A DNA stretch of 64,000 bases from Mycobacterium kubicae (GTDB lineage: Bacteria; Actinomycetota; Actinomycetes; Mycobacteriales; Mycobacteriaceae), in NCBI RefSeq assembly GCF_015689175.1, contig NZ_CP065047.1, positions 4,154,001-4,218,000 on the forward strand. Direction: 5' to 3'. Below, one piece after another: positions 41,604 to 54,435 of this stretch. The stretch's first letter is position 1, and every line of letters begins with the position of its first letter. The notes below the pieces were generated by a model, which worked only from the letters and a program-made list of their open reading frames with translations, was not told where the DNA came from and made no database searches. The translations under genes and the position numbers were made by a program.

Positions 41604-41682
41604 TTGCGTCGCGGAGTGCCCCCGATCGACACCGGAGGGCTCACTAAGCTCGGGATTCGTCGACCAACCTAAGGAGATGTCG

Positions 41683-42414
41683 ATGAAGCTTCGAACCCTC
41701 CTCACCAGCCTGGCCGCCGCCTTTGCTGTGGTTGTCGCCGTCGGCGGTTGCGGCACCCCCGGGCCGACGGCCACCAAGTCGTCCGGCGCCACCACCAGCG
41801 CCACCAGCGGCGAGGCGGCGACGTTGCTCAAGCAGGCCGCCGACGTCATGCGCAAGGTCACCGGAATGCACGTCAGCCTCACTGTGCAGGGCGACGTCGC
41901 CAACCTTCGGGTGACCAAACTCGACGGCGACATCTCCAGCACACCGCAGACCGTTGCCACCGGCGTCGCGACGGTGCTCGTCGGCAGCAAGAGCGAGGAC
42001 GCGAAATTCGTCTTCGTCGACGGCCATCTCTACTCCGATCTCGGACAACCCGGCTCCTACACCGACTTCGGCAACGGCGCCTCCATTTACAACGTGTCCG
42101 TCCTGCTCGACCCCAACAAGGGACTGGCCAACCTGCTCACCAACCTCAAGAACGGATCCGTGGCGGGCAGCCAGCAGGTGAACGGCGTCGCCACCACCAA
42201 GATCACCGGAGACTCGTCCGCTGACGACATTGCGACGCTCGCCGGTTCGCGCCTGACCGACCAGAGCGTCACCACGGTGCCCACCACCATATGGACCGCT
42301 TCGGACGGTTCCTCGCACCTTGTCCAGATCCAGATCGTCCCCAGCGCAGACACTTCGGTGACGCTGACGATGTCCGATTGGGGCAAGCAGGTCACCGCCA
42401 CCAAACCGGTCTAG
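41683..42414 (+). CDS. lprA: Lipoprotein LprA (LppX_LprAFG family)
   Basis: A 243-residue lipoprotein. Signal LLTSLAAAFAVVVAVGGC has the lipobox VGGC. The mature part has the LppX/LprAFG fold signature: AATLLKQAADVMRKVTGMHV, GDISSTPQTVATG, DGHLYSDLG and LTMSDWGKQVTATKPV. These proteins bind triacylated lipids in a hydrophobic cavity, and LprA of M. tuberculosis is a TLR2 agonist. The start at 41,683 is chosen over 41,677 since AAGGAG (41,671-41,676) then has 6-nt spacing. The counterpart is Rv1270c. Confidence 0.94.
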   Translation: MKLRTLLTSLAAAFAVVVAVGGCGTPGPTATKSSGATTSATSGEAATLLKQAADVMRKVTGMHVSLTVQGDVANLRVTKLDGDISSTPQTVATGVATVLVGSKSEDAKFVFVDGHLYSDLGQPGSYTDFGNGASIYNVSVLLDPNKGLANLLTNLKNGSVAGSQQVNGVATTKITGDSSADDIATLAGSRLTDQSVTTVPTTIWTASDGSSHLVQIQIVPSADTSVTLTMSDWGKQVTATKPV

Positions 42415-42438: not shown

Positions 42439-42807
42439 ATGACGACGATGACGACCCGCCGGCGCTTGGCGATGTCCGTCGCCCGCCTGGCCTGCGTCAC
42501 CGTGCTTGCCGTCGCGCCGGCTCCCGCGGCCCATGCCGCGGACAACTATGGCGCAATCGCCTACTCGGGCAACGGATCCTGGGGCCGGTCCTACGCCTAC
42601 CCGACCCGGGCGGCCGCCGAAGCAACTGCCGTCAAGTCGTGCGGGTACTCCGACTGCAAAGTGCTGACCACCTTCACCGCGTGTGGCGCCGTCGCGGCCA
42701 AAGATCACGACTACAAGGGCGGCACCGGCGCCGACCTGAGCGCCGCCATGAAGGACGCGTTGAGCAAGCTCAGTGGCGGTTACATCGACACCTGGGCGTG
42801 CAACTGA
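42439..42807 (+). CDS. Secreted DUF4189 protein (Rv1269c-like)
   Basis: A 122-residue exported protein. Signal peptide LACVTVLAVAPAPAAHAA, then a DUF4189 domain with NYGAIAYSGNGSWGRSY, four cysteines (KSCGYSDC, TACGAV, WACN) and repeated Ala-Lys helices. It lies 24 nt after lprA with GGAAAGGA in between, so it is probably co-transcribed with it. Proteins of this group are small exported proteins of unknown role. Confidence 0.87.
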   Translation: MTTMTTRRRLAMSVARLACVTVLAVAPAPAAHAADNYGAIAYSGNGSWGRSYAYPTRAAAEATAVKSCGYSDCKVLTTFTACGAVAAKDHDYKGGTGADLSAAMKDALSKLSGGYIDTWACN

Positions 42808-42952: not shown

Positions 42953-44113
42953 ATGTCTAGTAGCGCGATGGTGGACAAACGTCTGCAATTCGGACTGCTC
43001 GGACCGCTGGAAATGACCATCGACGGACACTTCGTGCCCCTGGGCACCCCCAAACAGCGGGCGGTGCTGGCCATGCTGGTCATCAACCGCAATCGACCGG
43101 TCGGGGTCGATGCGCTCATCACCGCGCTATGGGAGGAATGGCCGCCGGCGGGCGCACGAGCCAGCATCCACTCCTACGTGTCCAATCTCCGTAAGCTGCT
43201 CGGCGGCGGGGGAATTGACCCCCGCGTCGTGCTGGCTGCCGCGCCGCCGGGATACCGGCTCAGCATCGCCGACGAAACGTGCGACCTCGGCCGGTTCATC
43301 GCGGCCAAGAATGCGGGCACGCACGCGGCCGCCGCCGGCCGGTTCGACGAAGCCAGCAGGCACCTGTCGGCAGCGCTGCGGGAATGGCGCGGCCCGGTAC
43401 TGGATGATCTGCGCGATTTTCAATTCGTCAACTCTTTCGCCACCGCCCTCGTCGAGGACAAGATCCTGGTCCACACCGCCAAAGCCGAAGCCGAGATCGC
43501 CTGCGGACGAGCGTCCGGCGTCATCACCGAACTAGAAGCGCTGACCGTCGAGCACCCCTACCGCGAACCGTTGTGGGCGCAGTTGATCACCGCCTACTAC
43601 CTCACCGACCGCCAGTCCGACGCGTTGAACGCCTATCGGCGCGTCAAGACCACGCTGGCCGAAGACCTGGGCATCGATCCCGGCCCCACGTTGCGCACTC
43701 TGAACGAACGGATCTTGCGGCAGGAACCGTTGGATGCCAAGCACAACGCGAAAGTCACCGCCGTCGGAACGGTCACCGCACTAGACCTGCGCACCATGGC
43801 GCCCGGCCAGAAGGTCGTCGCCTACCTGCATGACATCGCCACCGGCAGGGGCTACGCGCTGGCGCAGGCGTCGACGCGCATCGGGCGCCTCAGTGACAAC
43901 GACATCGTCCTGGACAGCCCCAACGTCAGCCGCCACCACGCCGTCATCGTCGACACCGGGACCAACTACATCATCAACGACCTCCGCTCTTCCAACGGTG
44001 TCCATGTGCAGCATCAGCGCATCCGCGCGGCGGCCACCCTCAACGACGGCGACCATATCCGCATCTGTGACCACGAATTCACTTTTCGGATCACCGCCGA
44101 GGCGCAAGGCTGA
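42953..44113 (+). CDS. embR: Transcriptional regulator EmbR (SARP-type with FHA domain)
   Basis: A 386-residue regulator. Residues about 8-105 form an OmpR/SARP winged-helix (LGPLEMTIDGHFVPLGTPKQ), residues 112-270 are the bacterial transcriptional activator domain, and residues 290-386 are an FHA domain with the phospho-Thr pocket GRLSDND, SRHHAV and SSNGVHV. In M. tuberculosis EmbR is phosphorylated by PknH and activates embCAB, which makes arabinan. The FHA pocket residues are intact. The ATG at 42,953 follows GGAGG. The kinase genes follow on the same strand. Confidence 0.95.
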   Translation: MSSSAMVDKRLQFGLLGPLEMTIDGHFVPLGTPKQRAVLAMLVINRNRPVGVDALITALWEEWPPAGARASIHSYVSNLRKLLGGGGIDPRVVLAAAPPGYRLSIADETCDLGRFIAAKNAGTHAAAAGRFDEASRHLSAALREWRGPVLDDLRDFQFVNSFATALVEDKILVHTAKAEAEIACGRASGVITELEALTVEHPYREPLWAQLITAYYLTDRQSDALNAYRRVKTTLAEDLGIDPGPTLRTLNERILRQEPLDAKHNAKVTAVGTVTALDLRTMAPGQKVVAYLHDIATGRGYALAQASTRIGRLSDNDIVLDSPNVSRHHAVIVDTGTNYIINDLRSSNGVHVQHQRIRAAATLNDGDHIRICDHEFTFRITAEAQG

Positions 44114-44228
44114 TCCGGCACCCAAGCGACGCACCGCAATTCAGCCACCCGACGGTGCGGCTGCGGTACTGCTCAGCCGACGGCGCGCGGTCGACTCAGT
44201 CGGTTGCTGTGCGGGACCGGATCCGGCG

Positions 44229-44247
44229 AATATGGTGCGGCCATATT
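44229..44247. terminator. Inverted repeat between embR and the first kinase
   Basis: AATATGG (44,229-44,235) and CCATATT (44,241-44,247) form a perfect 7-bp stem with a 5-nt loop, 115 nt after the embR stop. It may end the embR transcript or be an operator. The interval 44,114-44,368 otherwise contains only the kinase promoter element. Confidence 0.35.
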
Positions 44248-44324
44248 GGCAAGCGCTTACCGTCACGGTTACGGTCATGGTTGCTGGACCCGGTCGTTGC
44301 CTTCGATGCGATAGTTTGCGGCGA

Positions 44325-44340
44325 TTGATAGTGTCGGCGG
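44325..44340 (+). promoter_or_regulatory. 16-bp element shared by two kinase promoters (copy 1)
   Basis: TTGATAGTGTCGGCGG lies 28 nt before the start codon. The identical 16 bases occur at 50,391-50,406, again 28 nt before the pknH start. GATAGTGT-like sequence is suitable for a -10 region. The exact sequence and distance imply a common promoter or duplicated upstream region. Confidence 0.55.
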
Positions 44341-44368
44341 ATTCGGGTTGGTATGAGGAGGGTCAACG

Positions 44369-46150
44369 ATGAGTGAGGGGCCGGACTCGCGAGTGGGGTC
44401 GATGTTTGGCCCTTACCACCTCAAACGGCTCCTGGGTCGCGGCGGGATGGGCGAGGTCTACGAGGCCGAACACACCGTCAAGGAGTGGACCGTCGCGGTC
44501 AAGCTGATGACCGCGGAGTTCAGCAAGGACCCGGTGTTTCGGGAGCGGATGAAGCGCGAGGCGCGCATTGCTGGCCGCCTGCAGGAGCCGCACGTGGTGC
44601 CGATCCACGACTACGGCGAAATCGACGGACAGATGTACCTCGAGATGCGCCTGGTCGAGGGCACCGACCTCGACAGCGTCCTCAAGCGGTACGGCCCGCT
44701 CACCCCGCCCCGCGCGGTCGCCATCATCACCCAGATCGCGTCGGCGTTGGACGCCGCACACGCCGCCGGCGTCATGCACCGCGACGTCAAGCCACCCAAC
44801 GTCCTGGTCACCCGCGACGACTTCGCGTACCTGGTGGACTTCGGGATCGCCAGCGCCACCACCGACGAGAAGCTGACCCAATTGGGCACTGCGGTCGGAA
44901 CGTGGAAATACATGGCGCCCGAACGCTTTTCGAACGACGAGGTGACCTACCGGGCCGACATCTACGCGTTGGCCTGCGTGCTGTACGAGTGCCTGACCGG
45001 CAGCCCGCCCTTCCGCGCCGACAGCGCAACGACGTTGGTCACCGCGCACCTGATGGACCCCGTCCCACAAGTCAGCGCGGCCCGGGCGGGCATCCCCAAG
45101 GCGTTCGACGGGGTCATCGCTCGGGGCATGGCGAAGAAACCCGAAGAGCGCTTCGCCAGCGCCGGCGACTTCGCGCGGGCCGCCCATAAAGCGCTCAGCG
45201 ACCCGGACCAGGATCACGCCGAGGACATCCTGCGCCGCAGCCAGGAATCCACCCTGCCCGGAACCGCTGTGGCCGCCCCGCCGCAACTGGCCCATTCAGG
45301 CGGCACCCCGCCCCCTGCCGGGCCATCACCTCCGCAACCGGGTTACGGCGGCGACCCGCTCAGTTCCGGTCCGCTCCAGCGTCAGGCACCGGCGGGTCAG
45401 CCGGCGTGGGCCAGCGGCCCCGTACCGAGTCAGCCGACGCAGACCCCGCAGTTCTATCAAGGCAGCGGCTGGGGTGGCCCGCCGCCGGGCGGCCCGCCCG
45501 GGTGGAACCAGGGCAACCAACCCGCTCCCAAGCGCAACCCCTGGCCCATCGTGGCCGGCGCGGCGGCGCTGGTCATCGTGCTGGTCGCCGCCGGCATCGG
45601 CATCTGGCTGGCCACCAAAGGCGGCGGTGGCGACAACGACGGCAAGGACACCACCACCCCGGTGCCCACGCCGAGTTCGACCACATCCAGCACGCCGTCC
45701 TCCACGACTCCTGCCGGTGACCCGCAGAGCCGCCTGCTCAGCAGCCTGCCGGCGGGCTACCCCGCCGGCACCTGCAAACCCACCACCCCCAAACCCGACA
45801 GCGTCTGGACCGGTGCGTTGGCGATGCTGGACTGCGGGCAGAACACGAATCAGGGCGGCCCGACCCGTGCGGTGTACGGACTGTTCCCCGACGTCGACAC
45901 GTTGCGGCAAGCCTTCAAGGACGACATCGCCGCCGTCGACCTGCTGGACTGTCCGGGCAGCGGAAAATCCCCGCAGGGCTGGCACTACGACAAACAACCC
46001 ACCGTCACCGTCGGCCAACTCGCCTGCGGCACATACAAAGGTCACCCGAACGTGATCTGGAGCAACGAGACCAAGCTGACGCTCAGCGACACCTTCGGTG
46101 ACCCCGTCACCTTGGAAGACCTGCACACCTGGTGGGGTAAGTACGGCTGA
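44369..46150 (+). CDS. Ser/Thr protein kinase, PknH paralogue with 4-Cys ectodomain (kinase 1)
   Basis: A 593-residue receptor kinase. The kinase domain covers residues 15-275: LGRGGMGEVYE loop, VAVKLM lysine, HRDVKPPNVLV catalytic loop, DFG, and activation loop TQLGTAVGTWKYMAPE with the Thr pair matching PknH T170/T174. A Pro/Gln-rich juxtamembrane linker spans about 290-388. One transmembrane helix is at about 391-413. The external domain of about 145 residues has four cysteines (GTCKP, LDCGQN, DCPGSG, LACGTYKG) and ends HTWWGKYG. This ectodomain is not the PknH sensor but is shared with kinase 2. The gene has no counterpart between embR and pknH in M. tuberculosis. Confidence 0.9.
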   Translation: MSEGPDSRVGSMFGPYHLKRLLGRGGMGEVYEAEHTVKEWTVAVKLMTAEFSKDPVFRERMKREARIAGRLQEPHVVPIHDYGEIDGQMYLEMRLVEGTDLDSVLKRYGPLTPPRAVAIITQIASALDAAHAAGVMHRDVKPPNVLVTRDDFAYLVDFGIASATTDEKLTQLGTAVGTWKYMAPERFSNDEVTYRADIYALACVLYECLTGSPPFRADSATTLVTAHLMDPVPQVSAARAGIPKAFDGVIARGMAKKPEERFASAGDFARAAHKALSDPDQDHAEDILRRSQESTLPGTAVAAPPQLAHSGGTPPPAGPSPPQPGYGGDPLSSGPLQRQAPAGQPAWASGPVPSQPTQTPQFYQGSGWGGPPPGGPPGWNQGNQPAPKRNPWPIVAGAAALVIVLVAAGIGIWLATKGGGGDNDGKDTTTPVPTPSSTTSSTPSSTTPAGDPQSRLLSSLPAGYPAGTCKPTTPKPDSVWTGALAMLDCGQNTNQGGPTRAVYGLFPDVDTLRQAFKDDIAAVDLLDCPGSGKSPQGWHYDKQPTVTVGQLACGTYKGHPNVIWSNETKLTLSDTFGDPVTLEDLHTWWGKYG

Positions 46151-46277
46151 TCTCGCGGCGTCACACACAGTGAAATCACTTGGCACGCTCGGCAATTGAG
46201 ACCGTGCCAGACGGTGCCGATCCCGGCGATGCGGATGGCCAACCGTTGGTGATGCGGCTATCTGGGGAGGGTTAGCG

Positions 46278-47989
<1,712 letters not shown>

Positions 47990-47993
<4 letters not shown>

Positions 47994-50338
47994 GCACCGA
48001 CGACCCGACCGATCCGGTGCGGCTGGAGTTGCGCGCTGACGGCCGGTCCTGGCGCCCCACCGCCAACCGCGCTTGGACCATCGGCCGGGCCAGCCAATCC
48101 GACACCTGTCTGGACAACCCGAGAGTGTCGCGCAACCACGCGGTGCTCGAGCCGTCCCCGGACGGGTGGACGCTGGTCAATCGCAGCAGCAACGGCATGT
48201 TCGTCGACGGCCAGCGGGTGGAGCGTCTACCCATCCGCGGTCCGATCCAGGTGCTGCTGGGTTCGGTGTCGTCGGGGCAGGTGGTCGAGATAATCCCGGT
48301 CGGCGACTCGGTGACACCGGCGCCCTCACCCGACGGGCAGGTCGAGACGACGGCCTCGCGCTCGCCGTCGGCGGTGCACGCCATCGACCAGGTGGTGGTC
48401 ATGATCGGTCGCGCACCCGACAACCATGTGGTGCTCAACGACCTGCTGGTGTCGCGCCGGCACGCCATCCTGCGGCGCCGGGACGACCAGTGGGAACTCG
48501 TCGACAACCACAGCGCCAACGGCACCTATGTCAACGGCAACCGGATCAGCCGGGCGGTCATCGGACCGCACGACATTGTCGGCATCGGCCACCAACTGCT
48601 GCACCTGTCCGGCGACCGGCTCGTCGAATACGTCGACACCGGCGATGTGTCCTACGAGGCGGCCAACCTGCGGGTGGTCTCGAAAACCGGCCGCGTGCTG
48701 CTCTCCGACGTGAGTTTCGTTCTGCCGCAACGCAGTTTGTTGGCAGTGGTGGGCCCCAGCGGTGCGGGCAAGTCGACCCTGCTAGGCGCGTTGACCGGCT
48801 TCCGGCCGGCCGGCAGCGGCACCGTGCGCTACGACGACCGCGACCTCTACGACAACTACGCCGAGTTGCGGCACCGGATCGGGTTCGTGCCGCAGGACGA
48901 CATCCTGCATGCCCCGCTGACCGTGCGCCGGGCGCTCAATTATGCTGCGCGTCTGCGCTTTCCGCAGGACGTCTCGGCCAGTGAACGCAAGCAGCGCATC
49001 GAGGAAGTGCTCACCGAACTCGGGCTAGCCACCCAGGCCGATCAGCGCATCGACAGTTTGTCCGGCGGACAGCGCAAGCGCACCAGCGTCGCGCTCGAGT
49101 TACTGACCAAGCCCTCGCTGTTGTTCTTGGACGAACCCACCTCCGGGCTGGACCCCGGCTATGAGAAGTCGGTGATGCAGACCTTGCGCACCCTGGCCGA
49201 TGACGGCCGCTCGGTGGTGGTGGTGACCCACAACGTCGCCCACCTGAACATGTGCGACCGCTTGCTCATCCTGGCTCCCGGCGGCCGGTTGGCTTATTTC
49301 GGTCCGCCGCAGCAGGCGCTCAGTTACCTCAACTGCGGCGACTTCGCCGATTTGTTCATTCTTCTCGAACATGACACGACCACCGACTGGACCGCAAAGT
49401 TCAACGCCTCACCGCTGCGCGCGGCCAGCACTGCCCGCCTGAAGGAGCGTCCCGCGCAACAAGGTCCGGGACCGGCGACCAAACCGGTGGCACAGCAGAG
49501 CGCATTCGCCCAATTCGCCATCTTGTCCCGGCGGTATCTGGCGGTCATCGCCGCCGACCGGCAATACTCGGTGTTCTTGCTGGTGCTGCCGCTGCTGCTC
49601 AGCCTGTTCGCCCATGCGGTTCCTGGTAAGGCGGGGCTATCGCTGACCAAGGCGATCGAGCAGCAGTCGACACAACCTTCGCAATTGTTGGTGCTGCTGA
49701 TCATCGGTGGTGCCCTGATGGGCTGTGCGGCATCCATCCGCGAAATCGTCAAGGAACAGGCGATCTATCGCCGCGAACACGGCATCGGCCTGTCCGGCGG
49801 CGCTTATCTGGCTTCCAAACTGGTGGTCCTCACCGTGCTGACCACCGGCCAGGGACTGATCCTCGGTTTCCTCGGCCCGGCCTTTCTGCCTCCTCCCGAC
49901 CAGTCGGTGGTAGTGCCCTGGCCGACCCTCGAAATAGCCGTCGCCGTGGTCGCGGTCACCGTCGTCTCGATGATCATCGGACTGCTGATCTCGGCCTGGA
50001 TCGGCAATGCCGACCGCGGCATGCCACTGCTGGTGCTGGTGGTCATGGCCGAGCTCGTGCTGTGCGGCGGCATGTTCGGGGTCAGGGGCCGCATTCCGCT
50101 CGAGCAGCTGGCGTGGTTGTCCCCGTCGCGGTGGGCGTTTGCGATGAGCGCGTCCACCGTCGACCTCAACGACTTACGCAGGACCATCCCGGGCGGAGAA
50201 CAAGATCCGTTGTGGGACTACAAGGTCAGCAGCTGGGTGTGGGCCGCGGTGGCATGTGCGGTGCAGGCGCTGGTTCTGATGCTGCTGATCGCGCTGCGCC
50301 TGCGCCAGCTCGACCCGCAACGCAAAGCGCGTATCTGA
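47990..50338 (+). CDS. FHA-domain ABC transporter, Rv1747-like
   Basis: A 782-residue full ABC-2 exporter with regulatory FHA domains. FHA1 covers residues about 8-100 (IGRASQSDTC, SRNHAV, RSSNGMFV). A short Ser/Thr-rich linker (100-125) follows. FHA2 covers about 130-210 (IGRAPDNHVV, SRRHAI, HSANGTYVNG). The ATPase covers about 225-460 (GPSGAGKSTLLGAL, LSGGQRKRTSV, LLFLDEPTSGLD, H-loop VVTHN). Six transmembrane helices follow to the end. FHA domains bind phospho-Thr, in Rv1747 on its own linker after phosphorylation by PknF. The coupled upstream kinase is the probable partner. The substrate is likely a cell-wall lipid or glycolipid. Confidence 0.92.
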
Positions 50339-50390
50339 GGTTCGGCGTCATCAGCGACGACCGAAACGTCGCGGGAATTGCTGAATGTTG

Positions 50391-50406
50391 TTGATAGTGT
50401 CGGCGG
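50391..50406 (+). promoter_or_regulatory. 16-bp element shared by two kinase promoters (copy 2)
   Basis: The same sequence as at 44,325-44,340 lies 28 nt before the pknH ATG, with a GGGAGG ribosome binding site between. The sequence just downstream (GCGGGTTGATTGGGAGGATCA) is also alike in both copies. Confidence 0.55.
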
Positions 50407-50434
50407 CACTGCGGGTTGATTGGGAGGATCAGCG

Positions 50435-52366
50435 ATGAGCGACGCGCAAACCTCGCGCGTGGGGTCGACGTTCGGGCCCTACCGCCTGACACGGTTGCTG
50501 GGTCGCGGCGGCATGGGCGAGGTCTACGAGGCCGAGCACACCGTCAAAGAGTGGACCGTGGCGCTCAAACTGATGTCCACCGAGTTCAGCAAGGACCCGA
50601 TCTTCCGGGAGCGGATGAAGCGCGAGGCTCGCATCGCCGGTCGGCTGCAAGAACCTCACGTGGTACCGATCCACGACTACGGCGAATTCGACGGCCAACT
50701 GTTCCTGGAGATGCGATTGGTCGAGGGCACCGACCTGGACAGCGTGCTCAAGCGGTTCGGTCCGCTGACGCCACCGCGCGCGGTTGCCATCGTCACCCAG
50801 ATCGCCTCGGCGTTGGACGCCGCCCACGCCGCCGGGGTGATGCACCGCGACGTCAAACCGCAGAACATTCTGGTCACCCGCGAGGATTTCGCGTATCTGG
50901 TGGACTTCGGCATCGCCAGCGCCACCACCGACGAGAAGCTGACGCAGTTGGGCACCGCGGTCGGCACGTGGAAATACATGGCGCCAGAACGGTTTTCGAA
51001 CGACGAAGTCACCTACCGCGCCGACATCTATGCGTTGGGCTGCGTGCTGCACGAGTGCTTGACCGGAGCTCCGCCATACCGCGCGGACAGCGCTGGAACG
51101 CTGGTCACCGCGCACCTGATGGACCCGATTCCGCGCCCCAGCGCGGCGCGCGCCGGCATTCCCAAAGCTTTCGACGCCGTCATCGCCCGCGCCATGGCCA
51201 AGAAGCCCGAGGACCGCTACGCCAGCGCCGGTGATCTGGCCCTGGCCGCCCACGAGGCGCTCAGCGATCCCGACCAGGATCACGCGGCCGACATCCTGCG
51301 CCGCAGCCAGGAGGCGACGGTCAACCAGCCCCCAACCGATGGTCCCAACGCCACCCTGCCGGCCACTGCGCTGGCGCCTCCCCCGCGACAAACTCCGATC
51401 ACCCCGCCGCCGGCGCCGCGGGTGCAGCAACCGCCGTTTGCCGGCGCGGTCGGTTCCGGGCGCTCCGGCCCGGCCGGGCCGTCGGGGCCGATTCCGCAGC
51501 AGCCGCCCGCGCCCGGTGGCCAGCCGGGGTGGACCCCGCCGAGCGGCCCCGTCCCCATGCCTGGCCAACCCATCGGTGCTCCGCCGTACTACCAGGGACC
51601 CGGCTGGGGTGGTACGCCGCCACAGCAACCCGGCGGTCCCCCGCATTGGGGCCAAGGGCATCCGCTGCCACCGGCCCGCAAGCGCAACCCGTGGCCGGCA
51701 GTCGCGGCCGTCGTCATCGTGTTGGTACTAATCGTGGGCGGGGTCGGTATCTGGCTGGTCACCCGGCCCGACCCGAAGCCGCCGCCCAAGCCCATCGCCG
51801 AGGACCGGTTGAGTTCGCTGCTGTTGTCGCCGCCGGAAGTGAACTCGGTGATGGGTTCGTCGAACATGCAACCCGGCAAACCGATTACGTCGATGGATGC
51901 CTCGACCGTCACAGTGTCCTTGCCCGACTGCCAGGGCGTGCTGTACACCAGCCAGACTCCGGCCTACGCCGGGTCGGGTTACACCGGCATCAGTGGGCTG
52001 GTGTCCTCCGAACCGGGCGACAACTACGACCACTGGGTCAATCAAGCCGCGGTCGCCTTCCCCTCAGCCGACAAGGCCCGCGCGTACCTGCAGACCTCGG
52101 CGTCCCGGTGGAAGAACTGCGCCGGCAAGACGGTCACCGTCACCAACAAGGGCAAGACCTATCGGTGGAGCTTTGCTGACGTCAAAGGCAGTCCGCCCAA
52201 GATCACCGTGGTGGACACCCAGGAGGGCGCCGACGGCTGGGAGTGTCAGCGGGCGATGAGTGTGGCCAACAATGTCATCGTGGACGTCAATGCGTGCGGC
52301 TATCACGTCATCGACCAGGGTTCACAGATCGCCGACAAGATCGTCGCCAAGGTCAACAAGGGCTGA
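50435..52366 (+). CDS. pknH: Ser/Thr protein kinase PknH
   Basis: A 643-residue receptor kinase. The kinase domain covers residues 12-275 (LGRGGMGEVYE, VALKLM lysine, HRDVKPQNILV, DFG, TQLGTAVGTWKYMAPE). A long Pro/Gly-rich linker (285-412) precedes a transmembrane helix at about 420-440. The PknH_C sensor domain (about 450-643) has four cysteines (PDCQGV, KNCAGK, WECQRA, NACGYH), matching the two disulfides of the M. tuberculosis sensor. It phosphorylates EmbR and so links an outside signal to arabinan synthesis. It is the orthologue of Rv1266c because of the sensor type and because the Rv1265 homologue is next door. Confidence 0.94.
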   Translation: MSDAQTSRVGSTFGPYRLTRLLGRGGMGEVYEAEHTVKEWTVALKLMSTEFSKDPIFRERMKREARIAGRLQEPHVVPIHDYGEFDGQLFLEMRLVEGTDLDSVLKRFGPLTPPRAVAIVTQIASALDAAHAAGVMHRDVKPQNILVTREDFAYLVDFGIASATTDEKLTQLGTAVGTWKYMAPERFSNDEVTYRADIYALGCVLHECLTGAPPYRADSAGTLVTAHLMDPIPRPSAARAGIPKAFDAVIARAMAKKPEDRYASAGDLALAAHEALSDPDQDHAADILRRSQEATVNQPPTDGPNATLPATALAPPPRQTPITPPPAPRVQQPPFAGAVGSGRSGPAGPSGPIPQQPPAPGGQPGWTPPSGPVPMPGQPIGAPPYYQGPGWGGTPPQQPGGPPHWGQGHPLPPARKRNPWPAVAAVVIVLVLIVGGVGIWLVTRPDPKPPPKPIAEDRLSSLLLSPPEVNSVMGSSNMQPGKPITSMDASTVTVSLPDCQGVLYTSQTPAYAGSGYTGISGLVSSEPGDNYDHWVNQAAVAFPSADKARAYLQTSASRWKNCAGKTVTVTNKGKTYRWSFADVKGSPPKITVVDTQEGADGWECQRAMSVANNVIVDVNACGYHVIDQGSQIADKIVAKVNKG

Positions 52367-52383: not shown

Positions 52384-52965
52384 TCAGCTTTGCAGATCGG
52401 GCCCTTGCGCACGCAGGTCGTCGACCGCTGACATGGCGCCGCGCAATTTGGCCAGCCATTCCTCGGCGTGCTCGCCCACCAGCTTGACCGACCAGGCCAG
52501 GGCATCGGCGCGCGAACGCGCGACGCCGGCATCGACGAGGGTGTCCAGGACCTGGCGTTCCGGTTGCTTTAACCGCGTCATGACCGGAACGGCGATGTGG
52601 GTGAACAGGATTCGCTTGACGCCGCCTTCGGACGGAACGTCGACGCCCCAGGAAACGGTGCGGCCGTAGCGGGCTTGCGCTTCGTCAGCGATGTTCATCC
52701 GCTCGCTGCGCGTCTCTTCGCGGAACCGTGAGGCTCTGCCTTCGGCGTGGGCGGAGCTTGCTTCTCCCGCGGCGTCCGAGTCGGGCAACTTGCCGATGAC
52801 GGTGATTTCCTCCCGGTCGACGATGACGGCGGGATCACCGTCGAACCACTCGTCCGGGAGGCGTCCGGCGAACCATTCGGCCGCGCCGCTGGCATCGGGT
52901 TGCTGCGCCTGCTGCCACCCTCCCGAGCGGCCGTACCGGCGTCCATGCATGTGCTGGCGTGTCAT
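52384..52965 (-). CDS. Rv1265-like conserved protein
   Basis: A 193-residue hydrophilic protein, somewhat shorter than Rv1265. It starts with Gly/Gln/Arg-rich sequence, then a beta segment (AVIVDREEITVIGKLP) and a helical C-terminal half (MNIADEAQARYGRTVSWGVD, then LKQPERQVLDTLVDAGVARS). M. tuberculosis Rv1265 is a cAMP-responsive, macrophage-induced gene next to the cyclase Rv1264. The neighbourhood is kept here. An 8-bp tandem repeat CATGATTA covers the start codon (52,963-52,978). The biochemical function is not settled. Confidence 0.83.
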   Translation of the reverse strand: MTRQHMHGRRYGRSGGWQQAQQPDASGAAEWFAGRLPDEWFDGDPAVIVDREEITVIGKLPDSDAAGEASSAHAEGRASRFREETRSERMNIADEAQARYGRTVSWGVDVPSEGGVKRILFTHIAVPVMTRLKQPERQVLDTLVDAGVARSRADALAWSVKLVGEHAEEWLAKLRGAMSAVDDLRAQGPDLQS

Positions 52966-53212: not shown

Positions 53213-53827
53213 CTATGTCGCTTGCCGCCCTTGCGAAGTGCCTTCACCGCGCCGAACGCGGAAGACTTTGGTCTCACCCTTGATGCCTTTGAACCGCCGG
53301 CCGCCGGCGAAGGACCAGCCGTAGCCGGCGCCATCGCCCACGTGCTCCCACACCGAATCCGCTGCGAGCACGGTGCCCGGTCGTGCCACCGCGGTGACCC
53401 GGCTCGCGACGTTCACCGGACTGCCGAACCAGTCGCCGGCTCGACAGACCGCCATGCCGCAGGCCACTCCGGCGCGAAGCCGGGGGAAGTCGTTGTCGGT
53501 GTCGACGACTTCGACCAACTTGAGCACGGTGTCCAGCAACGCCACCGGGTCCGGACTGACCAGCATCACCGCGTCCCCGATCGTCTTGATGAATCGCACC
53601 GGCGGGTCGGTCAAATCGCGGGCGAGATCGGCCAGCCGATTGGCGAGCTGGCCGAGTTCTTCGGGCGACACCAGCTCACCCAGCTTCGTGAAACCGACCA
53701 GGTCGGCGAACGCGACACTGACCTGACGCGCTCCCGGCAGTGGCTTTCCGGCGGCTCGCTCGCCGGCATTGACCGCTTCGGTTTCCATCATGTGCCGCAG
53801 CTGCAGCATCAGCATGTCTTGGATCAT
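53213..53827 (-). CDS. Adenylyl cyclase catalytic half (class III), after frameshift
   Basis: A 204-residue open frame holding the whole class III cyclase domain of the Rv1264 type. Metal-binding Asp in [12 protein letters not shown] and in IKTIGDAVM, substrate Lys in FIKTIGD, and the transition-state Asn and Arg in SPVNVASRV are all present. Its first codon is an internal Met of the normal protein ([20 protein letters not shown]), part of the linker helix. The ATG overlaps the stop of the N-terminal frame as ATGA (53,827-53,824). It could therefore be made as a separate, unregulated cyclase by coupled reinitiation. Confidence 0.7.
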
Positions 53828-54396
53828 CGGGCCGAGCAGCGGCGCGATCTCGCTGACCAGCGCCTTGGATGCCTGGCGATCTGCAGCTCGGTCAGTCCGG
53901 GACGCATGATCGCCGACAACGCGGTGTAACGCATGACCTCGGCCGCCTTCGCCAAGCCCTCGGCCAAGGTGCGCACCACCTGCACCACCTGGTCGGCGTC
54001 CAGCCCCGCGTCGACGAAATGCTGTGCGCGCGCGGCGGTCTCACCATCGGCGCGCATGTGGACGGCGGCGTCCGGGTCCTCTACCCGGACCAGCCCGATG
54101 GCGCGCTGCACGCGCTGCAGCAGTTCGAGGTCGACGCCGTGGCGTTCGCTGATCTCGCGGGTCGAGACATACGTGCCGTCATCGCCGATCAAATGGCGCG
54201 TAGCCAACAGCAGCGGCGGATTGGTGGCGCGGATCTCCTCAGCGGTGATGCCCTGCTCGAGCAGCCACCTCACGAGTTCGGCTCGCTCGGCGCGCGCGTT
54301 GCCGTCCAGTCCGTCGAGTAACCCGTCGATGTCGGCCGTCCCGTCCACGTGGTCCAGGTTCGCACACCGGCCGTGCCCGCGCGGCGATGGAACCAA
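53824..54396 (-). CDS. Adenylyl cyclase regulatory half (Rv1264 N-terminal domain)
   Basis: A 190-residue frame encoding the all-helical pH-sensing, autoinhibitory domain of the Rv1264 family. Segments such as [37 protein letters not shown] and [16 protein letters not shown] are near-identical to Rv1264. After residue Ala in LQIA the frame shifts and ends with an unrelated Arg-rich tail ([15 protein letters not shown]). It would still fold, but would no longer be covalently attached to the catalytic domain. Confidence 0.65.
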
Positions 54397-54435
54397 ACAG
54401 CTTGCCGGGCAATTACGTTGGGTTGATGGCCCGGT

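What the first reader, a model, noticed from the sequence alone, without database searches (positions are those of the whole stretch)
42953..52366. Expanded EmbR/PknH signalling island with two extra kinases and an FHA-ABC exporter
In M. tuberculosis embR is adjacent to pknH. Here kinase 1, kinase 2 and an Rv1747-like FHA-ABC transporter are inserted between them, all on one strand. Three FHA modules (one in EmbR, two in the transporter) and three nearly identical kinase domains sit side by side, so kinases could cross-phosphorylate several FHA partners. Three ectodomains of two types would let different outside signals converge on the same outputs (arabinan synthesis and export).
Basis: partly seen in the sequence, partly recalled or inferred. 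Interest (0 to 1): 0.75.

Follow-up and report, generated by a model that had tools for sequence, protein, structure and literature searches.

The report
Three-kinase RD900-type embR–pknH locus
A mycobacterial cluster of three sensor kinases, a gene regulator and a kinase-linked exporter turns out to be a fuller version of a locus already known as RD900, which tuberculosis bacteria and other mycobacteria have repeatedly trimmed down.

Summary
The genes are real: embR, two Ser/Thr kinases sharing an unclassified ectodomain, a two-FHA ABC exporter and a PknH-type kinase, on one strand. But nothing was inserted relative to M. tuberculosis. This is the RD900 locus (embR–pknH2–tbd2/maf1–pknH1) of M. 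africanum, M. canettii and M. kansasii, plus the extra kinase reported for M. marinum (pknH3), here contiguous; H37Rv's single pknH is a recombination product of such a locus (PMC3289620, PMC7785237). The exporter is not the Rv1747 orthologue. Among 116 distinct embR loci, 61 reach the far flank: 9 have three kinases plus exporter, 17 have PknH alone, in four separate clades; kinase-2 catalytic domains form one clade. Not described in the papers and passages I saw: catalytic domains of kinase 1 and PknH are homogenised within some genomes (own copies closer than any orthologue in 9 of 28, two by rounding; not in the window's genome), and one PknH-only gene is a kinase-1/PknH chimera with an interrupted frame. 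Activation loops are near-identical and FHA residues intact, so shared outputs are plausible but untested. Arabinan control by EmbR is disputed; lipid and hypoxia roles are reported (PMC9239209 abstract).

The parts
41677..42414 (+). LprA-type lipoprotein (LppX_LprAFG), upstream flank; a diverged second copy sits inside the locus in 6 relatives
   Evidence: Pfam 2.6e-62; flank seen in relatives; lprA2 clade
42439..42807 (+). DUF4189 protein, upstream flank
   Evidence: Pfam 4.4e-17
42953..44113 (+). EmbR (DNA-binding, BTAD, FHA domains)
   Evidence: matches PDB 2fez over residues 1-385
44369..46150 (+). Kinase 1: Ser/Thr kinase, proline-rich linker, apparent TM, four-Cys ectodomain; position of pknH3 in the published M. 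marinum layout
   Evidence: TM read by eye
46278..47993 (+). Kinase 2: Ser/Thr kinase with the same ectodomain family; position of pknH2
47990..50338 (+). Two-FHA ABC exporter at the tbd2/maf1 position; overlaps kinase 2 by 4 bp
50435..52366 (+). PknH-type kinase with PknH_C sensor (position of pknH1)
   Evidence: PDB 4esq 4e-103 and 2h34 4.6e-132
52384..52965 (-). AbmR regulator (Rv1265, by recall), downstream flank
   Evidence: NCBIfam NF058631 265 bits against cut-off 160

Best explanation
This is a full, compact RD900-type locus: a multi-sensor Ser/Thr kinase hub. Three membrane kinases with related catalytic domains and two kinds of ectodomain autophosphorylate on an almost identical activation loop; the phospho-loop docks the FHA domains of EmbR (transcription) and of the Tbd2/Maf1-position exporter (transport), which are then phosphorylated. 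Kinase 2 is the likeliest partner of the exporter here, as the genes overlap by 4 bp. The direct repeats formed by the kinase domains make the locus unstable: crossover collapses it (RD900 deletions, PknH-only loci), and gene conversion homogenises kinase-1 and PknH catalytic halves in some lineages while the sensor halves stay apart. Shown: anatomy, shared layout, PknH-only state in four separate clades, one chimera, homogenisation in relatives. Inferred: phosphorylation, docking, signal convergence, exporter gating.
For: Gene content and intact motifs. Published RD900 locus with the same order, lost repeatedly in the M. tuberculosis complex by recombination between kinase genes, and an extra pknH3 in M. 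marinum. Kinase-2 catalytic domains form one clade (98, FastTree) across distant lineages; kinase-1 and PknH domains intermix, with two own-genome pairs (L146, L106) at 98. 61 loci read to AbmR: PknH only 17, kinase 1+ABC+PknH 13, kinase 2+PknH 9, full set 7, kinase 1 only 6, six with a second lprA cassette, three others; the PknH-only label needs 5 changes on starred branches, four clades plus one further loss in L133. 18 of 21 outgroup loci have embR plus a kinase of the kinase-1/2 ectodomain family. Own kinase 1-PknH fourfold-site identity exceeds every orthologue in 9 of 28 genomes, up to 0.95 against 0.80. L121 is closer to kinase 1 of L114 in 11 of 12 windows up to nucleotide 800 and to PknH in 11 of 11 afterwards. 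The window's kinase-1 and PknH activation segment is identical and is shared by 33 of 38 kinase-1 and 43 of 54 PknH domains.
Against: No functional test. The window's own genome shows no recent homogenisation: own kinase 1-PknH 0.62, below the nearest orthologues (0.72 and 0.71). Of the 9 of 28, two (L136, L101) exceed only by rounding. The 4-bp overlap of kinase 2 and exporter was found in the window and L085 only, of 16 loci listed. The window's kinase-2 loop differs by two residues from the other two. EmbR phosphorylation was not seen in M. tuberculosis under normal growth (PMC9239209), only under certain conditions. No M. tuberculosis-complex genome was recognised in the collections used, so pknH1/2/3 are assigned by position. 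L121's kinase frame is interrupted, so that chimera is not evidence of a working product.
Confidence: 0.72

Rival explanations
1. Insulated pairs rather than a shared hub: PknH (or kinase 1) serves EmbR, and kinase 2 serves only the exporter, as PknF serves Rv1747; the genes are neighbours because they arose by local duplication.
For: Kinase 2 overlaps the exporter by 4 bp in the window and L085; the kinase-2 catalytic clade stays separate from the intermixed kinase-1/PknH domains; the window's kinase-2 loop differs; Rv1747 and pknF form a two-gene operon (abstract start of PMC3908365 in a listing).
Against: Kinase 2 occurs without an intact exporter in 9 kinase 2+PknH loci and in L145, and the exporter occurs without kinase 2 in 13 loci plus four with a second lprA, so the pair is not obligate.
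Confidence: 0.3
2. Recent expansion in the window's lineage by insertion between embR and pknH.
For: H37Rv has embR next to a single pknH (PMC7785237 passages); outgroup loci have a single kinase, so an expansion did happen, but before the lineages compared here split.
Against: The layout is published as ancestral; kinase 2 is one clade shared by distant lineages; exporter fragments remain in the L115 locus.
Confidence: 0.04
3. The high own-genome identity of kinase domains reflects recent duplication of whole kinase genes, not gene conversion.
For: Own pairs are closer than orthologues in 9 of 28 genomes.
Against: Identity falls at the end of the kinase domain, and no relation between the two ectodomain families was found, each being shared across species.
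Confidence: 0.08

Closest known systems
RD900 locus (embR–pknH2–tbd2/maf1–pknH1) of M. africanum, M. canettii, M. kansasii
   Same: Same order, strand and domain types as described in PMC3289620; recombination between kinase genes deletes the middle
   Different: The window has one more kinase; exporter identity to MAF12860 could not be measured
M. marinum pknH3–13.8 kb–pknH2–maf1–pknH1 (PMC3289620)
   Same: Three kinases and the exporter behind embR
PknF–Rv1747
   Same: Kinase gene beside a two-FHA ABC exporter
   Different: FHA-1 of the window's exporter matches Rv1747 FHA-1 (6ccd) only at 1.3e-4, while L172 and L175 of the same genome match at 1.1e-53 and 2.7e-45
PknH–EmbR of M. tuberculosis H37Rv
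   Same: EmbR and PknH_C kinase families
   Different: H37Rv has the collapsed single-kinase form (PMC3289620, PMC7785237)

Membership tests
RD900-type locus | embR, then kinase, FHA-ABC exporter and PknH_C kinase on one strand | tested here: met
RD900-type locus | flanks: lprA/DUF4189 upstream, Rv1265-, Rv1264- and amidase-type genes downstream | tested here: met
   the M. tuberculosis gene order itself is recalled
RD900-type locus | exporter orthologous by sequence to MAF12860 (tbd2/maf1) | not testable with these tools
RD900-type locus | collapse by recombination inside kinase genes in relatives | tested here: met
   (chimera L121); PknH-only in four clades
Rv1747 orthologue | FHA-1 matching 6ccd as an orthologue would | tested here: not met
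EmbR | winged-helix, BTAD and FHA domains, full-length match to 2fez | tested here: met
EmbR | phosphosites T22, T164, T198, T209, T275 (PMC9239209 passage) | tested here: inconclusive
   4 of 5 kept; position 209, one of the PknB-only sites, is Ala in the window
PknH | PknH_C sensor behind a kinase domain of the PknE/F/H kind | tested here: met
PknH | phosphorylates EmbR | not testable with these tools
   bench work
pThr-binding FHA | conserved Gly-Arg, Ser..His, Asn-Gly | tested here: met
   EmbR 72 of 75 rows by pattern; of the three misses L134 has the residues, L136 and L137 are partial rows. Exporter: 30 of 32 rows with both FHA domains, the two misses (L146, L148) being rows that start after FHA-1

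The most novel reading that the evidence does not exclude
The locus is a sensor-exchange device: gene conversion keeps the catalytic and activation-loop halves of the neighbouring kinases interchangeable so that different ectodomains feed the same FHA outputs, while crossover between the same repeats repeatedly yields new promoter/kinase/sensor chimeras. The RD900 deletions of the tuberculosis bacilli would be one case of a genus-wide process.
Probability: 0.4. Interest if true: 0.62.

Novelty: new member of a known kind. Interest (0 to 1): 0.42.

Why it matters
It corrects an H37Rv-centred view: the embR–pknH pair is a remnant. The older wiring probably had two more sensors and a dedicated exporter, and other mycobacteria supply natural replicates (full, partial and collapsed loci) for asking what each kinase senses and which FHA partner it serves. 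The kinase-1/2 ectodomain has no PDB match, and the window's copy no Pfam match.

Tried and rejected
Insertion relative to M. tuberculosis: rejected on literature and trees. Exporter as Rv1747 orthologue: rejected. Shared origin of the two ectodomain types: no support. A known family for the kinase-1/2 ectodomain: no Pfam match for the window's kinase-1 copy, and three families with one member each, best E 0.049, among 50 members; none in the PDB. The second lprA-DUF4189 cassette: lprA2 is one clade (97), but adjacency to the exporter may just reflect an old tandem duplication, so I make no functional claim. Searches for earlier print; the three papers holding 'gene conversion', 'pknH' and 'mycobacterium' do not describe it for pknH in the passages shown. 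Most subscription papers are outside that library.

Limits of the counts: one search found 205 relatives and kept the best 80; with the regions I had 151 loci with embR, 116 of distinct EmbR DNA; 61 reach AbmR. Dropped before the count: L001-L004, L157, L158 (the last holds a 64% EmbR-like gene of G060), and L092 and L135, which lack embR. I set kinase 2 as present by hand for L088 and L093 (second catalytic domain in the kinase-2 clade, ectodomain not scored), and the exporter as present for L095, L137 and L146 (broken or split hits); fragments in L115 count as absent. Of the 18 outgroup loci with a kinase, L069 has a further catalytic fragment. Fourfold comparisons use only ungapped 840-nt domains (28 genomes). 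Trees are quick or FastTree searches. Parsimony counts do not give polarity. Controls are not perfect: L153 kinase 1 is closer to PknH in 2 of 23 windows, and L153 PknH has 1 contrary window and 1 tie of 23.
Full report
Observation. The third kinase most likely starts at the ATG at 50435, not the TTG at 50420. Gaps: 255 bp embR to kinase 1, 127 bp kinase 1 to 2, 4-bp overlap kinase 2 to exporter, 96 bp exporter to PknH (coordinates). Against kinase 1, the catalytic domains of kinase 2 and PknH are 83% and 88% identical in protein. The ectodomains of kinases 1 and 2 are one family (47% identity between the window's two, four invariant Cys among 50 members) with no PDB match and no Pfam match for the window's kinase-1 copy. 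In a family-level search 7 of 101 genomes, in 3 of 31 genera, have a match to it, several in frames of 177-276 aa, too short to hold a kinase as well. The third ectodomain is PknH_C.

What it is. The premise that genes were inserted between embR and pknH is reversed. Bentley et al. 2012 (PMC3289620, section 15 read in full) describe RD900: in M. africanum two co-directional kinase genes (pknH2 upstream, pknH1 downstream) flank maf1, an FHA-ABC transporter, and the single pknH of M. tuberculosis H37Rv and M. bovis is a composite formed by recombination. They report an equivalent arrangement in M. kansasii, an additional kinase (pknH3) 13.8 kb away in M. marinum, simple RD900 deletions in M. avium, and suggest the M. 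marinum arrangement as ancestral. Mata et al. 2020 (PMC7785237, abstract and passages) find repeated independent RD900 losses in the tuberculosis complex, with M. canettii retaining it, call the exporter gene tbd2, and suggest that Tbd2 could be phosphorylated by PknH. A 2021 study (PMC8245516, passages) reports variable loss within lineage 1. The window therefore holds the pknH3-pknH2-tbd2-pknH1 set in contiguous form; this naming is by position, since no tuberculosis-complex genome was recognised in the collections. One point differs from Bentley et al.: they read M. smegmatis as a convergent deletion, whereas 18 of 21 outgroup loci here (EmbR at 70% identity or less) have embR followed by a kinase with a kinase-1/2-type ectodomain, two have none within 10 kb and one is cut, so a single kinase may be the state before the expansion.

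Distribution. Scanning named genomes with EmbR gave 80 loci; searches of 248 and 396 genus members (overlapping samples) gave further regions. After removing duplicates 116 loci remain, 61 running through to AbmR. States of the 61: PknH only 17; kinase 1+exporter+PknH 13; kinase 2+PknH 9 (one, L115, with exporter fragments); full set 7; kinase 1 only 6; kinase 1+exporter+PknH with a second lprA-DUF4189 cassette 4; full set with that cassette 2; kinase 1+2+PknH 1; kinase 1+PknH 1; no kinase 1. On an EmbR/AbmR/AmiB2 tree the PknH-only state sits in four separate clades (3, 1, 2 and 11 rows), and the label needs 5 changes, one of them the further loss in L133. Kinase-2 catalytic domains form one clade (98) spanning distant lineages. 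The exporter of this locus is a distinct subfamily: 30 long hits at 67-88% identity to the window's, against 35-44% for the next relatives listed. Together this favours an old full locus with repeated losses, as Bentley et al. proposed from fewer genomes; parsimony counts alone do not give polarity.

Recombination. Where kinase 1 and PknH both survive (28 genomes with ungapped domains), their own catalytic domains are closer at fourfold sites than either is to any orthologue in 9 of 28 (L103 0.95 against 0.80; L106 0.91 against 0.70; L099 0.90 against 0.80; L136 and L101 by rounding only), although the ectodomain families differ and each is shared between species. In L093 (one of the nine) and L097 (not among them, as a near relative is held) near-identity of 0.97-1.00 covers about nucleotides 75-600 and then drops to 0.80-0.89. 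I read this as gene conversion. The window's genome does not show it (0.62 against 0.72); its highest kinase 1-PknH similarity (0.92, 0.91) is at nucleotides 450-600, which hold the activation segment. In L121, whose EmbR DNA is identical to that of the named M. genavense record L036, the single PknH gene and its upstream region are closer to kinase 1 of L114 in 11 of 12 windows up to nucleotide 800 (the exception is 400-500) and to PknH in 11 of 11 windows afterwards; the two controls from L153 follow their own parent in 21 of 23 windows each. Its kinase frame is interrupted. This is a further RD900-type collapse outside the tuberculosis complex, with the crossover near the end of the kinase domain.

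How it probably works. The window's kinase-1 and PknH activation segments are identical, and the same segment occurs in 33 of 38 kinase-1 and 43 of 54 PknH domains examined; kinase 2 is more variable and in the window differs by two residues. FHA residues are intact in EmbR and in both exporter FHA domains. EmbR keeps four of the five phosphosites reported for M. tuberculosis (T22, T164, T198, T275; position 209 is Ala; sites from PMC9239209 passages). In vitro EmbR is a substrate of several kinases, so promiscuity is expected. PMC9239209 (abstract) reports no phosphorylation under normal growth and no action through embCAB, but condition-specific phosphorylation and effects on lipids and the hypoxic response. 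The exporter's cargo is unknown; Rv1747, a distant relative, is linked to phosphatidylinositol mannosides (PMC5549992, passages). I found no support for 'arabinan export'; a lipid cargo is the more natural guess.

Verdict. Ordinary in kind, richer in detail than the published accounts I saw: a new member of the RD900 locus type, with evidence for conversion and collapse across the genus as the part worth following.

Noticed in passing
window 53213-54426 (-): The Rv1264-type adenylate cyclase (1y10, 3.8e-97 for the downstream half) reads in two overlapping frames here, while 10 of 10 relatives looked at have an open frame of 370 aa or more in this interval; apparently interrupted, or a sequencing error. 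Described only.
   Followed up: partly
L095, L097, L099, L100, L101, L102: A second, diverged lprA-DUF4189 cassette lies inside the locus; 5 of the 6 also have a second exporter copy (in fragments in L095). lprA2 is one clade (97), and the two exporter copies of L101 are nearly identical.
   Followed up: partly
   Followed up: no
L098 and L157 (G045): embR of 84% identity with no hit to the locus kinases in the next 35 kb.
   Followed up: no
G017:C9:62303-63849: Three tandem stretches matching the kinase-1/2 ectodomain family in short frames (177-241 aa).
   Followed up: no
whole genome G000: 26 Pkinase stretches over the Pfam cut-off, 17 FHA stretches and 10 PknH_C stretches: a large Ser/Thr kinase set.
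   Followed up: no
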